Part shown: positions 3,309 to 45,174 of the stretch, in pieces
Position numbering within the stretch: position 1 is the first letter of the stretch
How the letters are laid out: each line of letters opens with the position of its first letter
Assembly: GCF_900496995.4 (NCBI RefSeq)
Contig: NC_044012.1
Coordinates: forward strand, 26,363,606-26,427,605
Length of the DNA stretch: 64,000 nucleotides
DNA from: Aquila chrysaetos chrysaetos
Lineage: Eukaryota > Chordata > Aves > Accipitriformes > Accipitridae
Direction: 5' to 3'
Made by a program: the position numbers and the translations under genes
Notes under the pieces: generated by a model
Database searches by the model: none
Seen by the model: only the letters and a program-made list of their open reading frames with translations
Told to the model about the DNA's origin: nothing

Positions 3309-3315
3309 TTTTAAT
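3309..3315 (-). terminator. Possible poly(A) signal of the DNAJA-like gene
   Basis: On the minus strand the sequence reads ATTAAA, a common variant poly(A) signal. It lies about 830 bp past the stop codon of the DNAJA-like gene, followed by a C-rich then A-rich tract on the plus strand. No canonical minus-strand AATAAA was seen between the stop and this point. Assignment as the 3' end is an inference. Confidence 0.35.
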
Positions 3316-4138
3316 GCCATGTACAAAGTGTCCCCCCCCCCCCAAAAAAAAAAGAAAAGAAAAAAAGAAAAATTTTTAAAATTCTTTCAAAAATAAATTA
3401 AAGGGACAGGTCCCCCCCCCAACCCCCTTTTGTTCTGTGCAAAGAGAAAAGAGAAATCCCCTCCGCTCCCCAGGCCTGACCCAGGCTCCAGCAAGGAAAG
3501 AAATGGGCAAAGCAAGGGATCTCGGGGGGGGGGCAGGCAGCAGCACCCCACGGTGTGGGGCCGGACGGCGCTGTGGGGCAGGGGCAGGGACCCCAGTGAG
3601 GGACAGCGGCTGAGCCAGGCAGTTCCCATCCTGCCCCAGTTGGTTCCTGTGGGGGCTTTGCCCCACAAGATCAGATGGGGAAACTGAGGCAGATGGCGAG
3701 GCCCCCGTCCTCCTCCTCAGTCCAGGGCTGAGCTGTCCCGGTGGAAGATGTACCCGTTGGGCTGCCGACAGCTGGATCCGGCCACCGAGCCCACGGCCAG
3801 CGGCTCCTGCATCGACAGGGAGATGGAGCCGGACAGAGGATCTGGCTCCCTCTCACCGGCAGGTCAAAGAGGGGCTTCGTCCCTGGCCTCTTCCCTTGGC
3901 GGAAGGGCGTGGGGGGGGTCCCCCAAACCAGGGCAGCCCCGTGCCTGGCTCCCCGGGGGGGGCAAGGGAGGTTAAGTGCTGTCAGAAAGGTGACCTATGT
4001 ACATCCCTGAACGTGACGGCTCTCCGAGCCCCCTTCCCCACTGAGCGGCCCCAGCCCTGTCCCACGATCCCATGGGACAAGTCCAGCTGCCACCCGTGGG
4101 GGGGGGTTCCGGCCCCCACCTCCCCCCTCTGCCCCCAG

Positions 4139-6648
4139 CTACGAGGTCTGGCACTGGACATGTTGGCGCACGCCATCCTCGAAGTCATCTTCGTGGTAGG
4201 CTTCGCCGGTGTAGGGCCGTCGGCCTGGCCCATTGTGGGATATGTAGTCGCTGAGCTCTACCTCCTCTGTGTCCTCGGTGGCCATCACCTCCTCCTGGGG
4301 CGGGAAGAAGGCCTGGAGCTGGCGCAGGCGGTCAGTGGGGAGCCAGCCTGGCTCTGGGAACTTCACCTGTGACCGGAGAGGGGAGATGGAAGCACAGGAT
4401 GGACACACAGGGACTGCGGCAATGGGGGACACTGGCTCCTGCCTGGCTCTGGCTCCTCACCTGGAACTGCAGGATGAGTTTTCCCTTCTGGAAGGGGCTC
4501 CTGTAGACAGGCATCCCCTCGTTAGGGACACACTTCAGGTCTCCAGGTCGGATAACATCACCTGAGACAGAGATTAGTGTCACCTCACTGTGCCTGGCAG
4601 CTCCTGGCACCCCCCCTTCTCCTTGCAGGGGGTATCACATAGCCCCCCACCCCATCCCACCCCACCTGGCTGGGAGGAGATGAGCAGGGTCCGGTTGTCC
4701 AGGGTGCGGATGACTTGTCGGCAGCCGCACAGGGCATCTGCCAGGCTGATCTCCCTCTTGACGATGAGGTCGTCACCGCTACGTCGGAAAACAGGGTGTT
4801 CCTTCTGATCCAGGACGATAATGATGTCCCCAGGCTCCAGGCCGGGAACCTGGTCCCCTTCCTCATGGAAGGTGATCTTCTGCCCGTCCTTCATGCCTGC
4901 GGGGTGCGCAGGGAGAGCTCAGGGTATGGGGGCCATTTTGGGGGTGACCTCGCTCCCCAACATGACCCCGTCTCACCTTTATCCAGGTGAACGCTGAGGA
5001 TCTTCTTCTCCCGCACGACCTTGCGGCCGTTGCAGGTGAGGCAGCAGTCCCGAGGCCGGATCCACTCGCCCTGGCCCTGGCACTGGGAACACACTGTCTG
5101 GATCTGCTGGATCATGCTGGGCCCCAGCTGGTGGATGCGAACCTCCATGCCTGAGCCGTGACACTTGGGGCACCTTCTCTGGGCACCCTCCCGCACCCCG
5201 CAGCCTGCGGCGAGGGGAGGCAGAGGGGTCAGCAGCTAGGCTGCGGTGCTGGGAAGGATCCCTGGGCACCCTGCAGCCCGGCCCCTCTGGCACTCACCTC
5301 CACATTTCCTGCAGATGATGTTCTTCTGCAGAGACAGCTTGCGTGTGGTGCCGTTGTAGAGATCCTCCAGCGACACCGAGAGCTGGTGCACCACCGTCTT
5401 CCCTGGATGGACGGAGGGGAGAGGCCAGATCAGCACCTGGCTGCACGTAACCCCCCAAGCCACGACCAGATGGATGCCGGATGCCGTGGCTCGGCACCAC
5501 CGGTTCTCCACGGGGAGCGGTGGCTGACAGCTTCCCTCCAGAGCCAGTCCCGCTTCATCCTCAGGGACGGCGGCAAGGACAGGAACAACTTTAAGCCAAG
5601 CTTGGTGCAAGGGCTCAGAAGAGCCTCTAGCAGGGATTTCCTTGCGTCTCCAAGCCCAGATCCTGCCAGCTGCCCCGGGGCAGCCCTGTGTCCCCAGTGT
5701 GGGTCGAGTATGGCTCCCACCCCAAGGCCCTCCACCACCCGGCCACCCTCCAGCTGCTTATTGCCTCAACCTGGCTGGAGAGGCTCTACCTGGAGTTGCC
5801 GAGACGCTCCCCTTGGCCTCCTAATTGCCTTGCTATTAAATCGCACCACTTCAGCAATAAACACCGTGGCAAGTCACCCTCTCGCTGTGACCCAGGCCAA
5901 AAGCATCCATACAGTCACCAGAGCAGCCCTGCACACCCTGCGTCTTGCTGCAGCCTCCCCCGGGGCTCACGGGGAGCCGAGGGCAGCGCTAGGCTGACTC
6001 AACCCCAGCCCTGGGGACAGCGGGGGAAAGCTGGGACAGGGACAGGGAAGGGCCCTTTGAAGAGGGGTAGATGGAGAAAGTAATGAGGATGACGAGGAGC
6101 CGCGTCAGGCTGTGCACTGCAGGGAGGGAGGTGGCCCGTGGGCCACCAACTGGATCCCGATGCCCACCATGCCGTGCCTGGGTGTCAGTCCCCTCCCAGC
6201 ACCCAGGGTCCCAGCGAGTCCTTTGCCCCCGGTACCTCGCCTGTCTGCCCTGCCACGCATCCGCACTCCCCCGCCGAAGAAGAGGTCGAAGATGTCCATG
6301 GGGGAGCCGAATCCGCCGCTCCCTCCTCGGCTCCCCAGGCCACCCTCCTTCATGGCCCGCTCCCCGCCGCGGTCGTAGAGCGCCCGTTTGTGGGCATCCG
6401 ACAGCACCTCATAGGCTTGGGAGATCTGCTTGAACTGAGGAAAAGGGGGAAAAGCGGGTGAGATTAGGGGGAAGTGAGCTGGGTGGAGTTCGGTGGGGGG
6501 GGGGGGCTGCACCTACCCGCTCGCCCTCACTGGGGTTCTTGTCAGGGTGGTAGCGCAGTGCCAAGCGCCGGTACGCCCGCTTGATCTCATCCAGGCTGGC
6601 TCCCGGCCGCACGCCCAGCAGGTCGTAGTATCCTGTCTCCTTCACCAT
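4139..6648 (-). CDS. DNAJA4-like: Class A DnaJ/HSP40 co-chaperone, DNAJA1/DNAJA4 group
   Basis: Seven coding exons on the minus strand: 6517-6648, 6236-6434, 5298-5402, 4977-5204, 4666-4896, 4461-4561 and 4139-4366. All junctions are GT-AG and in phase, giving 1224 nt and 407 aa (human DNAJA1 and DNAJA4 are 397 aa). The J domain occupies residues 1-67, with the HPD motif at 34-36 that stimulates Hsp70 ATPase. A Gly/Phe-rich linker with [13 protein letters not shown] follows. Next come four CxxCxG zinc-binding repeats (CRKCGG, CPKCHG, CSQCQG, CLTCNG), then the C-terminal substrate-binding domains. The protein ends in CQTS, a CaaX farnesylation box like that of DNAJA1 (DNAJA4 ends CQTA). It should act as a cytosolic or ER-surface partner of Hsp70. 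The start is the ATG before [12 protein letters not shown], the conserved family N-terminus. Orthology is uncertain: it resembles both DNAJA1 and DNAJA4 and is probably a third ohnologue. Confidence 0.93.
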
Positions 6649-6999
6649 CTTCCTTGCTGCTGACGTGCTGCAAGAGGAGAGAGCTGTGAGACCCGGCCTG
6701 GGACCCCTCCCCATCCCATGACACCTTTTCCTGGCCCACGACCCACACCCATGGGACTCACCAAGGGCTTTTATCCCTATTCTCCTCCCTGCACCCAGCT
6801 CACACAGCCCTGCCTCAGTTTCCCCACAGCAGCAGCATCCCATGGGATGGCAGAGGCTCGTCTGTACCGCAACCCAGCTGCTCTCCCCCAGCACCGGGCA
6901 ATGTGCCGAGAGCCGATAAGCCCCAGACAGGGTGTGGACGTGTTTATCTTGCGACACGGGTTGGGGGGAACATGGGGAAGTACCCATCTTCCTGCTCCC

Positions 7000-8150
7000 T
7001 GGCCCCCGGCAGGAGATAAATAAGTGGGCCCTCCTGAGAAACGCCACTGGATCGGCCCCCCCTGGGGCTGGCAGCCCTCCCCGGGGCCAGGACTGGCTCC
7101 GTCCCGTGGGGACCCGGCTCGGGCCGCTCCCCAGCTCCAAACCGGGGACTTCGGGGCTGGCGTCCCCTCCCGCCCGGGCACCTCCGAGCCCCCGCTCCCC
7201 GGGGGGGTATATGGGGCGGTCGCTGGGCCGGAGGGGGGGGGGCGGTGTGTGTGTCCACGGGCGATGTGACATCCCGGTCCCCAGGACGTGACAGCGAGGG
7301 GCGGCCGTGGGGACAGCCAGCACCCCCCACGGGGCACCCCACAGCGCGGGGGGCGGGACACACGGGACACCCCAAAGCCGGTCTCCGTAGGGCAGGACCC
7401 CGCCATGGCGGGGGAACTGGGGGGTGGATCACCCCCAAAGCACCGGACACCCCCCAAAGAGCCGCCGCCCCGGCTGGGTCAGAGCTCACAGGCCCCGGCA
7501 CCCCGGAACCGGGCCCGGCCGCCGACTCCTTGGGGTCTCCCAGGACCGGGCCGGTCCCTGCCGCCGAGGGGGAGGTAGGGAGGGAGATGTCAGGCCCCGG
7601 GGGGTGGAGAACCAGGGGGGTCCCGGGGGGGGGGCCGGGGCCGCCCCCCACTCACCGCCACCGCCGCCGCTCCGCTACCCGTCTCCGAACTCTCTGGAAG
7701 CCGGGGACACGCCCCCCGCGCTCCCCATTGGCTGGGAACGGCGCAGCGGGGACCGCCCCCTCCACCCTTCACGCCGCGTTCATTGGCCGCGACTCTATGA
7801 GCCCCCCGCCCACCACCTCGCCCCCTTCCCACGGCACCGACTCTCATTGGTTGTTGGCGTTTCCGGGCCGGTTCGGGAGGTGGAGCGCTTTGTCGGGTTT
7901 CGATTGGTTGCGATATCTGCCGGGTCCGCCTCCCATGCCGACACCTACTCTTTCATTGGCTAGAACCGGGTGGCCAATCGGGGGAAAGAGTGGGAATTCC
8001 GAACGCCGCGGCTGTCCTGCAGGGGGCGGCGTGGTGCGCGGCGGGCCCGATCCCGCCCCCGCGGGGGCCCGATCCAGCGGGGCAGGAGTCCGGGGCGGGG
8101 GTGTAGACTGGGCGGGGGTGGGGGGTGTCTGCCCTCTCGTGCCTGGTGCC
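7000..8150. promoter_or_regulatory. CpG island promoter with a five-box CCAAT array
   Basis: This is a dense CpG region upstream of the DNAJA-like gene. ATTGG occurs on the plus strand at 7727, 7782, 7846, 7903 and 7955, so all five are CCAAT in the orientation of the gene. One opposite CCAAT lies at 7973. The spacing is about 52-64 bp, typical of NF-Y-driven housekeeping or stress promoters. I did not find a convincing heat-shock element (alternating GAA/TTC every 5 bp), although the gene is an HSP40. Confidence 0.7.
7657..7725 (-). other. Probable non-coding first exon of the DNAJA-like gene
   Basis: On the minus strand a GCGG|GTGAGT-type donor lies near 7652-7656, and the next acceptor is CTTGCAG just before 6667, 19 nt upstream of the start codon. 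A short 5'UTR exon spliced to the first coding exon is therefore likely, lying immediately downstream of the CCAAT cluster. The transcription start is inferred, not seen. Confidence 0.5.
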
Positions 8151-14101: not shown

Positions 14102-17100
14102 TCACTCGTCCGCCAAGGACCAGGGCTCCTGCTCGGCTCTCAGCCGGCACGCCGGTGGCTGGTCGGGTGTGAGGCACAGGACGTTGTCCCCCAAAGTGGA
14201 CGGTACTGGGATGGTGTCAGCTCCGCTGTGCTTGCTATGCGGGGTGGCATCGGCCAGCTTGGCGGCAGTGGCATCTCCAGGAGCAGGGGGCTGTGGTGGC
14301 ATCACTGCAGTGGGGTCTGCAGTCTCTGTGGGGAACTCCTGTGCCGGTGGCATGCTGGCGATGCCATTCAGCATCTCCTCTGTGAATTCGGCCAGGTCCT
14401 CCAGGCTGGCCTCCCGGTGCAGCCCATTCTCGGCCCGAACCGGACCCTCCATCCCCGGTGCCACATCTGCCGGTGCCTCCTGCACCGTCGGCTCCTCCTC
14501 GCTGGACAAGACGGGTGAGGATTCTTCCCCGGCATCCCGGGGGAGCTCAGTCCCACCAGGATCCCGCTGCCCACCCTCAGCCGCCCTCACCCCCATCACC
14601 AGCTCCTGGTTGAACTCCAGGGCTTGCTCGACTATTTCCAAAATATCTGAGTCTTTCATGATGTCCACCGGCACTTTTGCAGAGAGATCAGCTGCACCTG
14701 GGCTTTCTTCAATAATCTCTGGAAAACCTCCCTGCTCTGGTGCGGAGCCCAGCCGAGGTGGATTGGCCTTGGGAGGCTCCTTGTCCCCGGCCGGGGGAAG
14801 GCTGTCACCATCCCATGCTTCCTCCTCCATAAATGGTTGCTCATCCGATGTCTGCTCCGCTTGGTCAGGCAGTGGAGAAACTGGCATTGCGTGAGCCTGG
14901 AGCCCTGCCGGAGGGATGGGCTCGGCTGCATCATGGTGAGCCATGCTGGGCTCATCCTCCTCCTCCTCCTCCTCCTGCCCCACCAGCCCCAGGTTGCAGC
15001 CTGGGAGCGTTTCAGCTCTGCCAGCATTGCTCTCCAGCTCCACCGTGCCATTGAGCTCCCCATCTGATTCAGCAGCCAAACCCTCCGAGAGCCCTGGTTC
15101 CTCACGCGTGCCAGAGCCTGTGGAACCCTGGGCTGGCTCATCACTGCCTCCTGCTAACAGCCCCATGTCCCCAGGCGAGCCAAGATCTGCTTCAGGCACA
15201 GCTGGGCCTTCCTCCAGCTTGGCAGTAAAACCCCCAGCATCGTCCTCATCCTCATCCTTTGGCATCTCAGGTTCTTCTATGGGCATCTTCATGTCTTCAT
15301 CTGCTTCACCAATAAATGCCTCAAAGTGCCCTTCGTCCTCTGGCACCAGAGACGCTTCTCCAAGAGCTTCCAGATCATCTTTGCCTGCTTCGGTTGCTTC
15401 AACTTTAATTTCTTCAAAGTCCTCGGAGATCTCAGGTTCCTCTGAGCTGGACACCTCTTGGTTGGGAGCAGAGACAATGAAATAGCCTTCCTCCTCCTCG
15501 GCACCCTCTGCCACAGGGGCTACCTCCATCCCTGCCTCCTCTTCGCAGCTCTCTGGCATGGTGGGAGTTGGTGGCTTGTGCCTCCCTTCCAGCCATCCTT
15601 CATCCTCTGGAGCTATTTCAGATGCAGAGGCTGTCTCTGTGGTCTCCTCAATCTCTGGTGGGTTTTGGCTGGATGCAACCATAGCCAGCATCTCTCCTTC
15701 ATAGAGGTGCAAGGGTGTGCTGTCCGGCAGTGTGTCCTCCAGCTCCACGCTCCTGCCTGTCCCCAGTGCCTGCTCCAGCTCTCCCAATTGCCCGCCATCC
15801 TCCTCCGCCGACTCACCAGTCTCCGCGCCATCACCTGGTGCCTGCTGAAGTGCCATAGGGCCAGTGCTGCTGCTTTCTGGCTGTCCCAGCTCTGAGCTGA
15901 TCTCATCGTCAGCATCTTCATCCTGCACCTCCCATGGCTCCTCCGGAGCCTCGGCCGGCTCCTGGCTGTCCCCTTGCCCAGGGACATCTGCAGGTGCCTG
16001 GGCAGGTTGCCCTGCAGTGCCCTCCTGCTCATCCCTTGCCAGCTCCGGGCCTGGCTCAGCCTCCAGCGGTGGCTGCTGCTGGCTCATACCCTGGCTCTCG
16101 GCATCTTCATCATCTTCCTGGGTTTCCTCCAGCTCTGCCGGTAACATGCTGTCTGTCTCCTCACTTTCCAGCCCTCCTGCGCTTGTCGGGCTGTCATCTA
16201 CCCATGCTGGCTTTTCTGTCCCCAGAGCCCCCTCTGTGTCCTCTGCTGTCACCTCCCAGTCCTCTGGATGGGCCTTTTGGCCACTGCCATCATCACCCCT
16301 GCCCCAGGGCTGCTCTCCTGGCTCCGGCTCTGGCTCCAGCTCCGGCTCCAGCTCCTCCTGCTCCCGCACCTCTTCTGCAAAGCTATTTTCCTGCAGGTCC
16401 CCAGGCTCCTCCCGGGCTCCGCTCTCCTGCCCCAGGGTTTCAGGTCCCACAGCCTCTCCTGCCCGGGGGTCTTCTCCTCCCAGAGCCTCCCCGCCAGCCT
16501 CTCCCTTTTCTCCCTCACCATCTTTTGCTCTGCCTGGGTCCTCCCCTCCCACGGCATCTTCTTCAGCCCCCAGTGAAGCCTCTTCTGCTGGGATGGCCTC
16601 ATGGATGCTTGAGGGCTCCTGCTCTGGGCATGCCTCCTGCCTGCTTTCCTCCTCTGCAGTGAGATCTGTCTCATACACGGGCATTTCCTGATGCTCAAAC
16701 TTTTCCTGGTCTCCATCAACAAGGTCCTCTTCCAGGTGACTTTCCATGGGCAAAATTGGGTGGCTTTCCACGAGGACAGCATGAGCAGCTTTGACTTCCC
16801 TTTGCGGGGACTTCCCTCCTTGCGCATCTATTCCTTTGACCTGGAAATCACCGTCCTCCCCGCAGGGGCTGTGGGGTCCCCTCTCCCCCTTGTCCTCCGA
16901 GGGGTGCGATGCCTCTGTGCTTGGGGCCTCTGCCTCATCCTCCCCTCGCTCTGGCTCTTCCCAGCTGCTCCCCATCTGGCCAGGGCCACTTGCATCCTCT
17001 TCCTGGGTCACCGCTTCTGGTTCCCTTGGGCTCAGCACAGTGGGCATCTCCTCCTCCCACGGTCCCATCTCTTCCCGGCTCGCTGCGGCACTTAGGGAAG

Positions 17101-20100
17101 AAGCCGTGCCACAGGGATGCAGTCCTGGTGGGGATGCAGCTCTGTCCCACAGGGCACTGGTCTCCACACCCAGCCCCTGGAGCACGGCTTCCCCAGCCCT
17201 CTCCTCTGCTTCGGGGGATTCACTATCCCTGGCACCCTCGGTGGGGTCTTGCCTTTCCCCGGCCCCCTCTGCAACAGCCCCTCCACAAGCCTCTATGGGT
17301 GGAACGGGGCTAGAGACACGGGCATCCTGGGGCGCCCACACAGCGCTGAGCATGGGTTCTTCTTTGGGCTGAGCATCATCTTGCATTTCCTTGAGAGCAT
17401 CCTCCAGCGCCTCGCTGACCAGCTGGGCTGGGTACTGCAGGCTGCGGGCAGGCGCTGTTCCCGGGGGCTCGATGCTGGCATCGTGGGCCTCCGCCACAGC
17501 TCCAGGTGGAGGATGCTCCTTCCCTTGGCTCATCTCACCACCGTCTCCCCCTGGCCAGGCAGGACCCTCTCCCCCCGGGCTCCCCGGCTCTGGTGGCACG
17601 GGGCTGGCGGGCTCTGGGGAGAGAGGATGGGCAGCTTTGCCGGGCTGCGAGGAGCTTGGCACGGGGCAGCCAGAGGTGCCTGGCTCTCTGGCCGTGCCGG
17701 CAGCCTGCAGTGCTGTGGCATGGAGGACTGAGCTGATTTTCTGGAGCTCCCTGGCACCAGGGCTCTGGCTTTTGGGTGTCAGGGTGTCACTTTGGGCTTT
17801 TGCTGGCTGCCCCCTCCCCTCTGCCCTGGGGAAGACGGAGGGGCTGGCACGGTGGTCCCGGGGCAGCAGCCGCCTGGCCTCGGTGCTCACCGGTGCCAGC
17901 TTGCCACCGCTGCTCACCTCCAGCTTGAGATCTGCAAAGAGCGAGGGGGAGCGCAATGAGCGTGCTGAAAACCTGCTCGTGTGGCTCCCCCATCCCTCCT
18001 TTGCTGCCTGGGTGCCTCTTGCTGCCCGCTGTCCCCTGTCCTATTTTTAAACAGCCCCTTCACGGAAAGTGGGAAATTCCTCCCTCGAGTGCAGCCGATG
18101 CCGATGCTCCCAGGGGATTTGGCATCATGCAGGGACAGTAATGCTCTGCCCCGCTGCAGCCGCAGTCATCTCCTGCTGCTGGGGGGGAGTGTGCAGTTGA
18201 CGGGCTTTCCTTGTTATTTTTTGGGAGGAAAAAGTAAATTGCTCAGCTTGTTACAACAGCCTGCAGTCCCACTGGGCATGTGGATCTGCTCCTGCCCTCC
18301 CCATGCGGGGCAGGAATGAAAAAAAGAGGCAAAGAAGCAGATAAGCCCTTATCTGCACCACGGCGGCTGCAAGCCCCGTGCCAGGAGCCCCCCGGCCGCT
18401 GTTCGCACCTTCCTATCTCGGCTGAGCAACCGCTGCCAGGAAAATGCTTGTGTCTATATTCAGCCTCATCCCCTCATCCCCCCCAACTCCCCCCGGGGTG
18501 ACGCGGCAGCGGTTCCGGGGCTGGTGCCGGTGCTCCCTTACCTCGCAAGCCATTGGCCATCTTGTATTCCCCAGCTGGCATTTGCAAGCGGGTGCTCTCT
18601 GCTTCCAGCAGTGTCCTGCAAGGAGAGGAGTGGGGTGGGTGCTACTGGGTGGGTGCTGCGGCGTGGGGGTGTGTGTGACTGCACCACAGTGAGAGCTGAG
18701 CTGCTCCCTGTGCACTCCAGCACACCCCACTCAGCTACGGCAGCTGCTTTGCAGGTAAACTGAGGCACAAAGGGGTTATGGATGGTTTTGCTTGGCGGAA
18801 GTACTGGGGTTGGGGGGGGGGTCAGAGCAACCCCCCTTGCTCCTATCTCCCCTCCCATCCCCCCATCCCCAGGATTAGTGTCCATGCTGGGTGACATCAT
18901 GGTCTGCCGGGGAGGCCCCTCGGCTCAGCCAGGGACAGTTCCTATTCTCATGCTAATTGTCCCCCCAGTCCCCTGGCAGCCTGCCTTTGTCTGGGGCCAT
19001 CTGGAAAGGCTGGAAGAGGGGCGCGGGCCTGCCCCTACGCAAGACCCCCCTTATGCCCAAGACCTCCCTTGTACCCGAGACTCCTCCTGTGCCTGAGACC
19101 CTCCCCGTGCCCACTACGGCGCAGGGTTTGGCGCCAGCACCCTGCACATGGGTATGTTGGGGGGAAGCGGCTGGTCCCCAGCCCTGTCCCCATCGGGGAC
19201 CTCACCTGTAGGTTGCCACTTCCAGGCTGAGGGACATCTTGAGGTGCATGAGCTGCTGCCTGTCCTCCAGCACTTGGGCGATCTGCACCCGCAGGGTCTG
19301 CTTCTCCTGCTCCAGGGCCTCCATCGCCAGCTGCAGGCAGCATGGGGGGGGGGGGGGGGTCAGGGACACCTCAGCCCTGCTTGAACCCTGCCTGAACCCT
19401 GCCAGATGTGGGACCACGTGGGTGGCTCTCGTTTCCACCCAGCACCCTTCGGGATGCTGCAGGGAGAGGGGTCCTGGGTGCTCGATTTTAGCACAGGGAG
19501 GGGGGGCTGAGGATGGGGAGGGAGGGGGGTGAGGAGAGGAGCAGGGCTGAAAAGTGAGGGGGAGACAGCTGCCAGAAGTGGGAGGAAAGACCGGGGGGAT
19601 TCAGGATTGCAAGACACCAGTGTGGGAAAGAAGCATCTTTTGGGTGAGCGACCGAGGCGGTGGCACCCTCTGCTCCATGGCACCCATGCCGTCCCCAGAC
19701 CTGAAACAAAGAGGGACCCTTTCCCGGGCAGTGTCCACGCTGCCCCTGGCATTTCCAGCCCCGTTCCACGGCCACCCCCCCCCCCCCCTCCCCCCCGCCG
19801 CCACCTCCCTCTGCTGAATTACTTTTGCAGCTGTTGGGTTGCAACTGCAGGGTTGCAGCTGCAGCAAAGTCGGTCAGAGTTTATCCTCCCCACAACGCCC
19901 CCGCTGCCTGTACCCCACTGCCTGCACCCAGCACTGGGGGGGGGGAGGGCAGTGGGCAGGGGGTGCTGTTCCTCTGAGACCCTGGCTCTGGAGGCCAGCA
20001 GGACGTGGAGCAGCAGCCCCAGGCAGGGTGGTGGGGGAGGACCCAGTGTCTGGGTGCTGGTCCCTTGCAGTGGGGGGCTCCCGGGTCCCTGTTGTGGTGG

Positions 20101-21163
20101 GGACAAGGATGTCCCTGAGCTGCTCTGCTCTTCTTCTACCACCACCCCCAAGCTTCCTGTCCATCTGTAACTTACCCAGGGCCACCATCCATCCCTGCCC
20201 TGGGGTTTGCTCCCTCCATCTTGCCTCCTCCTATCCATCTCCCCTGTCCCTTTGCAGGGGGTGGGTGCCCTGAGCATCCCCCCAGGCACCCACAGCACAC
20301 CGTTCTCCTCCTCCCTAGGGGACTGGCGCTTCCCCACCACCTTCACCCACCTGGAACTTCTCTGCCTCCCCACGCTGTTCCTGCCACTGCCGGGCCAGGC
20401 TCTCCTCCAGCATCTCCTTCCGTGCTTTGAGCCCCGCCAGGTCCTTCTCCAGGTGCTGCAGCTGCAGCTGGCTCTGCTGGTTGTCCTCCACTGCTTTCCA
20501 GAGGTTCTCCTTGGCTTGGCAGAGGGAAGTCTCCAGCTGCGACACCTCTGTCTTGTAGGTCTCCACCGCCCCTTTCCAGATTTCTGAGAGCCTCTTGGAG
20601 TAGTCCTCCACTTCCACTGGCTGGAAAGCCACCGGTGCACAGCGGAAGCTCTCCAGGCTCTGCGAGAAGCTTGCGATCTCCTGGTCTAGCCCCGCTTTCT
20701 CCTCCTCGTGCACCTCCAGCAAGGCTTCCACCTCCTTCTCCAGCTGCACGGCTCTCTCCTTCAGCCAGATCTGCGCTCTCCTCTCCTCCTCCAGCTCCTT
20801 CCTGCTCAAGGACAGCTGCTTCTTGGCTTCTTCTCGGGCTGCCTGCTCCTTCTGGCACCTGCTTTTCACCTGCTGAACCTCCTCATAGAGGTTGTCCCTG
20901 GCCAGCTCAGCTGTGCACTTCTCCCTGAAGGCATGATCCAGCGCATCCCGCAGGGCTCGCAGCTCCTCCTCATACTTTGCCCGCCACGAGTCCCCAGCTG
21001 GGCTACCCTTGGCACTCTGGATTTCGGCTCGCAGCACCTCGTTTTCTTCCTCCAGGAATTTCACGCGGGCCAGGTACGCCTCCAGCCGCTTGTTGAGGTC
21101 CCACATCTGCAGCGACTCCTCACCAAGGGCTCTCGCCCCCACAAAACTTTCCGTGCTTAGCAT
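14102..21163 (-). CDS. NES: Nestin, class IV/VI intermediate filament protein
   Basis: Four minus-strand exons: 20351-21163, 19206-19330, 18542-18615 and 14102-17931. The CDS is 4842 nt (1613 aa; human 1621). Exon sizes of 125 and 74 nt for exons 2 and 3 and the single giant tail exon are the nestin pattern. A short head leads into coil 1A (GEESLQMWDLNKRLEAYLAR). The alpha-helical rod extends to about residue 325 and ends in the filament termination motif VATYRTLLEAESTRLQ. The tail of about 1280 residues is strongly acidic (Glu-rich) with no other fold, and contains DTLPDSTPL, which is also present in the human tail. Nestin co-polymerises with vimentin-type filaments in neural progenitors and developing muscle. 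The start chosen is the first ATG in frame; it gives 13 residues before GEESLQMW, longer than the human head. Gene direction is opposite to BCAN (head-to-head). Confidence 0.96.
18940..18962 (-). promoter_or_regulatory. NES: SOX+POU composite site in NES intron 2
   Basis: Read on the minus strand, intron 2 (18616-19205) contains ACAATTAGCATGAGAAT: a SOX-type ACAAT overlapping a POU-type ATTAGCATGAG. The mammalian neural-progenitor enhancer of nestin sits in intron 2 and depends on adjacent SOX2 and class III POU (Brn-type) sites with very similar sequence, as I recall it. Position, spacing and sequence agree, so this is probably the conserved enhancer core. Confidence 0.75.

Positions 21164-31084: not shown

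Positions 31085-41864
<10,780 letters not shown>

Positions 41865-43401: not shown

Positions 43402-45174
<1,773 letters not shown>

What the first reader, a model, noticed from the sequence alone, without database searches (positions are those of the whole stretch)
4139..8000. Additional vertebrate DNAJA gene next to nestin, probably lost in mammals
A complete 407-aa class A DnaJ lies beside NES. Human has DNAJA1 on 9p, DNAJA2 on 16q, DNAJA3 on 16p and DNAJA4 on 15q25, and none at 1q22-23 that I know of. DNAJA4 on 15q25 sits beside CRABP1, and the same arm carries ACAN-HAPLN3, RHCG, MIR9-3, MEF2A and SYNM. Those are ohnologues of BCAN-HAPLN2, RHBG, MIR9-1, MEF2D and (as intermediate filament) NES around this locus. 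The simplest reading is that this gene is the DNAJA4 ohnologue of the 1q22 paralogon, kept in birds. Intact J domain, zinc repeats and CaaX box argue that it is functional.
Basis: partly seen in the sequence, partly recalled or inferred. Interest (0 to 1): 0.8.

Follow-up and report, generated by a model that had tools for sequence, protein, structure and literature searches.

The report
Overlooked DNAJA chaperone gene beside nestin
Between the CRABP2 and nestin genes of this bird lies an intact third copy of the DNAJA1/DNAJA4 chaperone gene, apparently left over from the early vertebrate genome duplications, kept by coelacanth, amphibians, reptiles and birds and not found in mammals.

Summary
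The gene is real: minus strand, seven coding exons (4139-6648), 407 aa with J, zinc and C-terminal domains and a CQTS end. In an ML tree it joins a third clade (100/100) with alligator, turtles, tuatara, squamates, frogs, newt, caecilians and coelacanth, sister to jawed-vertebrate DNAJA4, sharks included; DNAJA1 lies outside. AU tests against rival placements are only marginal (p 0.013-0.064). Synteny in the bird's own genome supports it: the gene sits about 5.7 kb from CRABP2, beside NES, BCAN and HAPLN2, 160 kb from a MEF2; DNAJA4 sits 35 kb from CRABP1 and shares a contig with ACAN/HAPLN3/MEF2; a DNAJA1 shares a contig with VCAN/HAPLN1/MEF2; none was found on the fourth paralogon contig. 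Databases list it as 'DNAJA1-like', and Xenopus 'dnaja4.2' belongs to the clade. Absence from mammals rests on two protein searches. It most likely works as an ordinary class A Hsp70 co-chaperone; activity and expression were not tested.

The parts
7656..7700 (-). 5' non-coding exon (donor after 7656; upstream limit not determined, 7700 is a guess)
   Evidence: donor GTGAGTG; spliced to 6667 it matches the N-terminal read-through of the Accipiter model P0004 (sequence, compared by eye)
6517..6667 (-). exon 2: 19 nt of 5'UTR, then ATG at 6648; most of the J domain with HPD
   Evidence: Pfam DnaJ residues 7-65
6236..6434 (-). coding exon: end of J domain and G/F-rich linker
5298..5402 (-). coding exon: start of C-terminal domain I and first zinc repeat
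4977..5204 (-). coding exon: zinc repeats (CxxCxGxG)
   Evidence: Pfam DnaJ_CXXCXGXG residues 141-207; G000:C9:26368625-26368810
4666..4896 (-). coding exon: C-terminal domains
   Evidence: Pfam DnaJ_C residues 115-336
4461..4561 (-). coding exon: C-terminal domain
4139..4366 (-). last coding exon: acidic tail, CQTS (CaaX-type) end and stop
7727..7978 (-). promoter region with six CCAAT boxes in 252 bp (59 in the whole 64 kb, both strands)
14102..18040 (-). long ORF of NES (nestin) tail, syntenic neighbour; rod start near 21097
   Evidence: 93% to Haliaeetus albicilla nestin over 97% of the query
31922..33666 (+). BCAN link-module exons, syntenic anchor (name by position)
   Evidence: Xlink hits C9:26395527-26397271
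43414..44230 (-). HAPLN2 link-module exons, syntenic anchor (name by position)
   Evidence: Xlink hits C9:26407019-26407835

Best explanation
This is a third DNAJA1/DNAJA4-type gene of jawed vertebrates, the ohnologue of DNAJA4 that belongs to the CRABP2-NES-BCAN-HAPLN2-MEF2D block. It was made by the early vertebrate genome duplications and is kept in coelacanth, amphibians and sauropsids. It was lost, or at least is not found, in mammals, ray-finned fishes, cartilaginous fishes and lungfish. It most likely works as a cytosolic, prenylated class A Hsp70 co-chaperone. The HPD loop of the J domain triggers Hsp70 ATP hydrolysis, the zinc region and the C-terminal domains bind unfolded client, the protein dimerises, and the CQTS end is farnesylated so that part of the pool sits on membranes. 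Shown here: gene structure, domains, clade, neighbours. Inferred from the known biology of DNAJA1/DNAJA2: chaperone activity, dimerisation, prenylation. Inferred from tree and synteny: timing at 2R, loss in mammals.
For: Intact 7-exon gene and domains. Third clade 100/100 with Latimeria, Amphibia and Sauropsida; sister to DNAJA4 including sharks and ray-fins (A4 98/92; both together 100/95) in a 59-row tree. The same grouping in a 50-row tree without nine rows (100/98, 98/92, 100/100). Seven coding exons at the same places as DNAJA4 of this genome. Paralogon inside this one genome: convergent pairs of link-module genes on four contigs, C5, C9, C12 and C37 (22 of 32 Xlink matches; the other 10 are on six other contigs and form no such pair), and MEF2-type MADS boxes on the same four (4 of 6 matches; 2 weak ones on C13). 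DNAJA4 is on C5, this gene on C9, a DNAJA1 on C37; no DnaJ zinc domain was found on C12. CRABP1 is 35 kb from DNAJA4, CRABP2 about 5.7 kb from this gene. Constraint: 96% identity to ostrich over 299 aa, while the nestin tail next door is 48% to ostrich. Motifs in 49 rows (window and 48 of the 49 clade proteins): HPD in 46, four zinc-repeat matches in 45, Cys at position -4 in 46.
Against: AU tests are weak. On the full set the rival groupings give p 0.045, 0.051, 0.048 and 0.064; they fall to 0.013, 0.019, 0.035 and 0.037 only after I dropped nine rows. No member was found in sharks, ray-fins or lungfish, so a 2R date needs several independent losses. The clade evolves faster (mean depth 0.85 in 11 sauropsid rows against 0.46 and 0.28 for amniote A4 and A1). 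On C5 and C37 the DNAJA gene is 9-16 Mb from the lectican and MEF2 genes, so there the link is only a shared contig of 77-88 Mb. A second DNAJA1-type copy lies on C29, on which no lectican, HAPLN or MEF2 match was found. CRABP and DNAJA are on the same strand on C5 but convergent on C9. Some listed bird models are less alike: 82% (Pyrgilauda, 385 aa), 88% (Regulus, 380 aa), 70% (Pelecanus, 330 aa); all are shorter than 407 aa. No expression or biochemical evidence.
Confidence: 0.87

Rival explanations
1. A later duplicate: the gene arose from DNAJA4 by a segmental duplication in the lobe-finned fish lineage, after the split from ray-fins, and was inserted beside CRABP2/NES.
For: All named members found are coelacanth or tetrapod (49 of 146 retrieved proteins, one of them unnamed). 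With tetrapod DNAJA4 held as sister the AU p is 0.051 on the full set.
Against: DNAJA4 of sharks, ray-fins and tetrapods form one clade without it (98/92). AU p 0.045 (with sarcopterygian A4) on the full set, 0.013 and 0.019 (sarcopterygian, tetrapod) without nine rows. Landing by chance next to the CRABP paralogue of DNAJA4's own neighbour, on a lectican/MEF2 contig, would be a remarkable coincidence.
Confidence: 0.09
2. A recent duplicate, retrocopy or tandem copy of DNAJA1 or DNAJA4 in birds.
For: Databases name it 'DNAJA1-like'; this genome does hold an extra DNAJA1-type copy elsewhere, on C29.
Against: Six coding introns at DNAJA4 positions; clade shared with turtles, squamates, amphibians and coelacanth; DNAJA1 and DNAJA4 are separate loci in this genome.
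Confidence: 0.01
3. A decaying or silent gene: intact by chance, not expressed.
For: Faster evolution than its paralogues; no expression data available here; some bird models are shortened.
Against: 94-97% identity of the three bird models that cover the whole query at 416-462 aa, and 96% to ostrich over 299 aa, while the neighbouring nestin tail falls to 48%. CpG-rich start with six CCAAT boxes. No dN/dS was computed.
Confidence: 0.03

Closest known systems
DNAJA4 (human 15q25, recalled; here G000:C5:41536024-41541351)
   Same: Seven coding exons at the same places, class A domains, near a CRABP gene, on a lectican/HAPLN/MEF2 contig; sister clade
   Different: About 63-65% identical to reptile, bird and mammal DNAJA4 in the listing. 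Eight signature positions shared by at least 90% of the clade rows and at most 5% of A1/A4 rows: R28, S134, K159, R195, C280, Q282, P311, F353 in window numbering. CQTS rather than CQTA end (human DNAJA4 end recalled). Nearly twice as much change since the common ancestor
DNAJA1 (here G000:C37:16.09M, with a second copy on C29)
   Same: Class A architecture, CQTS-type end (human DNAJA1 end recalled); on another contig of the same paralogon
   Different: Outside the A4 + new-gene clade (100/95); on the contig of a different link-module pair, not beside CRABP2/NES
Xenopus dnaja4.2 (X. laevis 'member 4, gene 2', P0070; X. tropicalis P0036)
   Same: Falls inside the new clade: an ortholog that already has a name
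   Different: The name suggests a second frog dnaja4; the tree says an ancient separate gene shared with birds
DNAJA2 (PDB 7zhs)
   Same: Same domains; best solved-structure match by sequence (4.1e-117)
   Different: A more distant class A protein; the locus at C9:15.0M is taken as DNAJA2 by elimination

Membership tests
Class A (type I) J-domain protein | J domain with HPD | tested here: met
   Pfam DnaJ 3.1e-25; HPD in the window protein and in 46 of 49 rows; the other 3 (P0005, P0009, P0016) are partial or shortened models
Class A (type I) J-domain protein | four CxxCxGxG-type zinc repeats | tested here: met
   Pfam DnaJ_CXXCXGXG 2.1e-12; four pattern matches in the window protein and in 45 of 49 rows, three in the other 4
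Class A (type I) J-domain protein | C-terminal substrate-binding domains | tested here: met
   Pfam DnaJ_C 1e-39
Class A (type I) J-domain protein | stimulates Hsp70 ATPase, refolds client | not testable with these tools
   needs purified protein
Cytosolic DNAJA1/4 group | prenylatable C-terminal Cys at position -4 | tested here: met
   CQTS in window; Cys at -4 in 46 of 49 rows, the others having truncated or alternative ends; prenylation itself not tested
Ohnologue of DNAJA4 | separate clade, sister to gnathostome DNAJA4 | tested here: met
   100/100 and 100/98, sister support 100/95 and 100/100; AU tests marginal, p 0.013-0.064
Ohnologue of DNAJA4 | lies in a paralogous block with several shared gene families | tested here: met
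   CRABP, lectican, HAPLN, MEF2 and DNAJA on both C5 and C9; C37 carries a link-module pair, MEF2 and DNAJA1. On C5 and C37 the distances to lectican and MEF2 are 9-16 Mb
Ohnologue of DNAJA4 | duplication before the crown of jawed vertebrates, with members or remnants on the shark or ray-fin side | tested here: inconclusive
   the tree dates the split before sharks, but no shark or ray-fin member was found among 146 proteins
Gene lost in mammals | no mammalian ortholog and no gene between NES and CRABP2 | tested here: inconclusive
   9 of 9 retrieved proteins labelled mammalian fall outside the clade; no mammalian genome searched; NES-CRABP2 adjacency in human is recalled

The most novel reading that the evidence does not exclude
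The ancestral jawed vertebrate had three cytosolic DNAJA1-type co-chaperones. The third, retained through coelacanth, amphibian and sauropsid evolution under constraint but at nearly twice the rate of DNAJA4, has acquired its own clients through changes in the zinc region (R195) and the client-binding C-terminal domain (C280, Q282). Mammals did without it, so chaperone networks worked out in mouse and human lack one arm that birds, reptiles and frogs use.
Probability: 0.3. Interest if true: 0.6.

Novelty: new member of a known kind. Interest (0 to 1): 0.45.

Why it matters
It corrects the vertebrate class A chaperone set. A published copy-number table gives Dnaja4 as human 1, chicken 1, frog 2 (PMC4277396, Table 2, passage seen). 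A frog gene named as a second dnaja4 turns out here to be shared with birds, reptiles and coelacanth. Database names (DNAJA1-like, DNAJA4-like, dnaja4.2) hide one ortholog group, so expression or functional results may be filed under the wrong gene. It also gives a three-of-four retention in the lectican/MEF2 paralogon, and a natural case of apparent loss of a core co-chaperone in mammals that can be tested by knock-out in chicken cells or Xenopus.

Tried and rejected
Rejected: recent duplicate or retrocopy (introns, deep clade); avian DNAJA1 or DNAJA4 itself (both are elsewhere in the genome); nestin mis-identified as synemin (one search names nestin). Motif search for CRABP inside the window gave nothing; the gene lies just outside it.

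Led nowhere: planned own-genome searches for mir-9, IQGAP, lipocalin and the window protein did not complete. The alternative C-terminal tail seen in the Accipiter model was not resolved. No structure was predicted. Literature, listings only unless a passage is named: DNAJA4 with ohnolog, 0 papers; Hsp40 evolution terms, 20 papers; dnaja4.2, 1 paper, an Alzheimer transcript study; ohnologs lost in mammals, 28 papers, 20 listed; HAPLN/aggrecan/brevican/MEF2/paralogon, 3 papers; DNAJA1-like and similar names, 10 papers, none on this gene by title; DNAJA4, Xenopus, chicken, synteny, J-domain (any 4), 3 papers; DNAJA, CRABP2, nestin, brevican, chromosome 25 (any 3), 4 papers; DNAJA4, amphibian, paralog, lost in mammals, sauropsid (any 3), 227 papers, 10 listed, none of those 10 holding DNAJA4.

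Rows dropped: the first quick tree used the window and 62 proteins; the 59-row tree uses the window and 58 of 146 retrieved proteins, chosen by hand for taxon spread; the 50-row tree drops six frogs, hagfish, tuatara and dipper, mainly because the frog branches are long, and it gave the better AU values. N-terminal extensions before MVKET were trimmed in the trees. The motif counts leave out P0073, a clade member recognised only later.
Full report
OBSERVATION. The minus strand of 4139-7700 carries a complete gene. Seven coding exons with GT-AG introns give 407 aa; Pfam finds the three class A DnaJ domains. A non-coding first exon with its donor after 7656 fits an acceptor at 6667. In the Accipiter nisus protein model P0004 the reading frame runs from that exon into the known start, which fits this splice (sequence, compared by eye). 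A TTTAAT (minus-strand ATTAAA) lies at 3310, a possible end of the 3'UTR.

RELATIVES. Two database searches listed 120 proteins each, 146 distinct. In a tree of all 146 plus the window, 49 join the window in one clade. These are birds, alligator, turtles, tuatara, squamates, frogs, newt, caecilians and the coelacanth; one of the 49 (P0124) has no name. Nine proteins labelled mammalian fall outside, as do those labelled ray-finned fish, shark, skate, chimaera and lungfish. Each search scored only the roughly 8000 candidates sharing most words and listed the best 120. The full-length clade members sit at the top of the list, with DNAJA1/A4 proteins after them, so a well-preserved mammalian member should have appeared; a divergent or unannotated one could have been missed.

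TREE. Careful ML tree, 59 rows, amphioxus as outgroup: new clade 100/100, DNAJA4 98/92, the two together 100/95, DNAJA1 100/97; hagfish joins DNAJA1 weakly (92/53). Without nine rows, six of them frogs: 100/98, 98/92, 100/100, 100/98. AU p-values for rival groupings were: with sarcopterygian DNAJA4 0.045 then 0.013; with tetrapod DNAJA4 0.051 then 0.019; with DNAJA1 0.048 then 0.035; outside A1+A4 0.064 then 0.037. I read these as moderate support, not proof. The clade is the fastest of the three. Long-branch pull would be expected to move it towards the outgroup, not towards DNAJA4, so it does not easily explain the sister relation.

PARALOGON IN ONE GENOME. The window lies at G000:C9:26363606-26427605 of a 1.23 Gb genome. 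Its nestin tail is 93% identical to Haliaeetus albicilla, so it is probably an accipitrid. Of 32 link-module matches, 22 fall in convergent (+ then -) groups on C37, C5, C12 and C9; the other 10 are on C2, C3, C6, C16, C17 and C20 and form no such pair. MEF2-type MADS boxes are on the same four contigs, one each, plus two weak pieces on C13. By similarity to named proteins, DNAJA4 is on C5, DNAJA1 on C37 (and a second copy on C29) and this gene on C9; the loci at C9:15.0M and C25 are taken as DNAJA2 and DNAJA3 by elimination; no DnaJ zinc domain was found on C12. Which lectican is which (VCAN, ACAN, NCAN, BCAN) is assigned from recalled human and chicken locations. To the left of the window lie CRABP2, ISG20L2 and HDGF, found by recalled motifs. 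A CRABP with 83% and 78% identity in exons 1 and 2, taken as CRABP1, lies 35 kb from DNAJA4. The two DNAJA genes share all coding-intron positions. On C9 CRABP2, this gene, NES, BCAN, HAPLN2 and MEF2 lie within about 170 kb. On C5 and C37 the DNAJA gene is 9-16 Mb from lectican and MEF2. The shared CRABP neighbour is therefore the tightest evidence; the rest is contig sharing that fits a fourfold ohnologous block.

SYNTENY IN OTHER SPECIES. An ostrich model (P0193) fuses nestin with residues 109-407 of this gene at 96% identity. Cinclus cinclus nestin and DNAJA are both listed on a 4,099,612-base contig, and Emydura macquarii nestin and DNAJA both on a 6,022,122-base contig. The gene therefore appears to lie by nestin in a palaeognath, and on the nestin contig in a passerine and a turtle. 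Coelacanth, frog and squamate locations were not tested.

CONSTRAINT AND FUNCTION. The window protein is 96% identical to ostrich over 299 aa, while the nestin tail next door is 48%. Three bird models that cover the query at 416-462 aa are 94-97% identical; three shorter ones are 88%, 82% and 70%. HPD, zinc repeats and the -4 cysteine are kept in 46, 45 and 46 of 49 rows (most exceptions are truncated models, but four rows show only three zinc-repeat matches). I therefore infer an ordinary Hsp70 co-chaperone. Eight signature residues separate the clade from DNAJA1 and DNAJA4; client differences are possible but untested.

LITERATURE. PMC4277396 (passages seen) counts Dnaja4 as human 1, chicken 1, frog 2. 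The frog surplus fits this clade, though which genes were counted was not seen. PMC2075511 (passages seen) compares genes around nestin in human, mouse, rat, chicken (chromosome 25) and X. tropicalis; 'DnaJ' and 'heat shock' do not occur in its main text. PMC9858487 (passages seen) finds amphibian 'DNAJA4' as a relatively separate clade, possibly the same mix-up; that is my inference. PMC3898273 (passages seen) gives HAPLN2 next to BCAN in dog. No paper naming this gene as a separate ortholog group came up in the listings.

VERDICT. Finding and interpretation hold, with a wider distribution than claimed and with mammalian loss still an inference. It is a new member of a known kind, already in databases under misleading names.

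Noticed in passing
window 7727-7978: Six CCAAT boxes within 252 bp just upstream of the first exon, spaced mostly 52-64 bp, against 59 in the whole 64 kb; a dense NF-Y-type promoter.
   Followed up: partly
window 3721-3840 (-): A short open frame ending SSCRQPNGYIFHRDSSALD in the presumed 3'UTR resembles the alternative C-terminus of the Accipiter nisus model P0004, which lacks the CaaX end; possible alternative last exon or a prediction artefact.
   Followed up: partly
G000:C29:3538447-3541632 (L003): A second DNAJA1-type copy with open exons and collinear introns, about 66% identical at DNA level to the C37 copy over 2.3 kb; may be the W-linked partner of a Z-linked DNAJA1 (sex linkage is inferred).
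   Followed up: partly
G000:C9: One 45 Mb contig carries both the presumed DNAJA2 gene (15.0 Mb) and the nestin region (26.4 Mb), which in chicken lie on different chromosomes (recalled); fits the fused chromosomes of accipitrid birds.
   Followed up: no
G000:C5, C9, C12, C37: All four link-module pairs are convergent here, whereas in dog BCAN's promoter and first exons follow the downstream end of HAPLN2, i.e. tandem (PMC3898273 passage); the mammalian arrangement may be derived.
   Followed up: no
G000:C5:52962573-52968247 (-): The minus-strand link-module matches beside the presumed ACAN fall in two groups about 4 kb apart, as if HAPLN3 were doubled or a second link-module gene lay there.
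   Followed up: no
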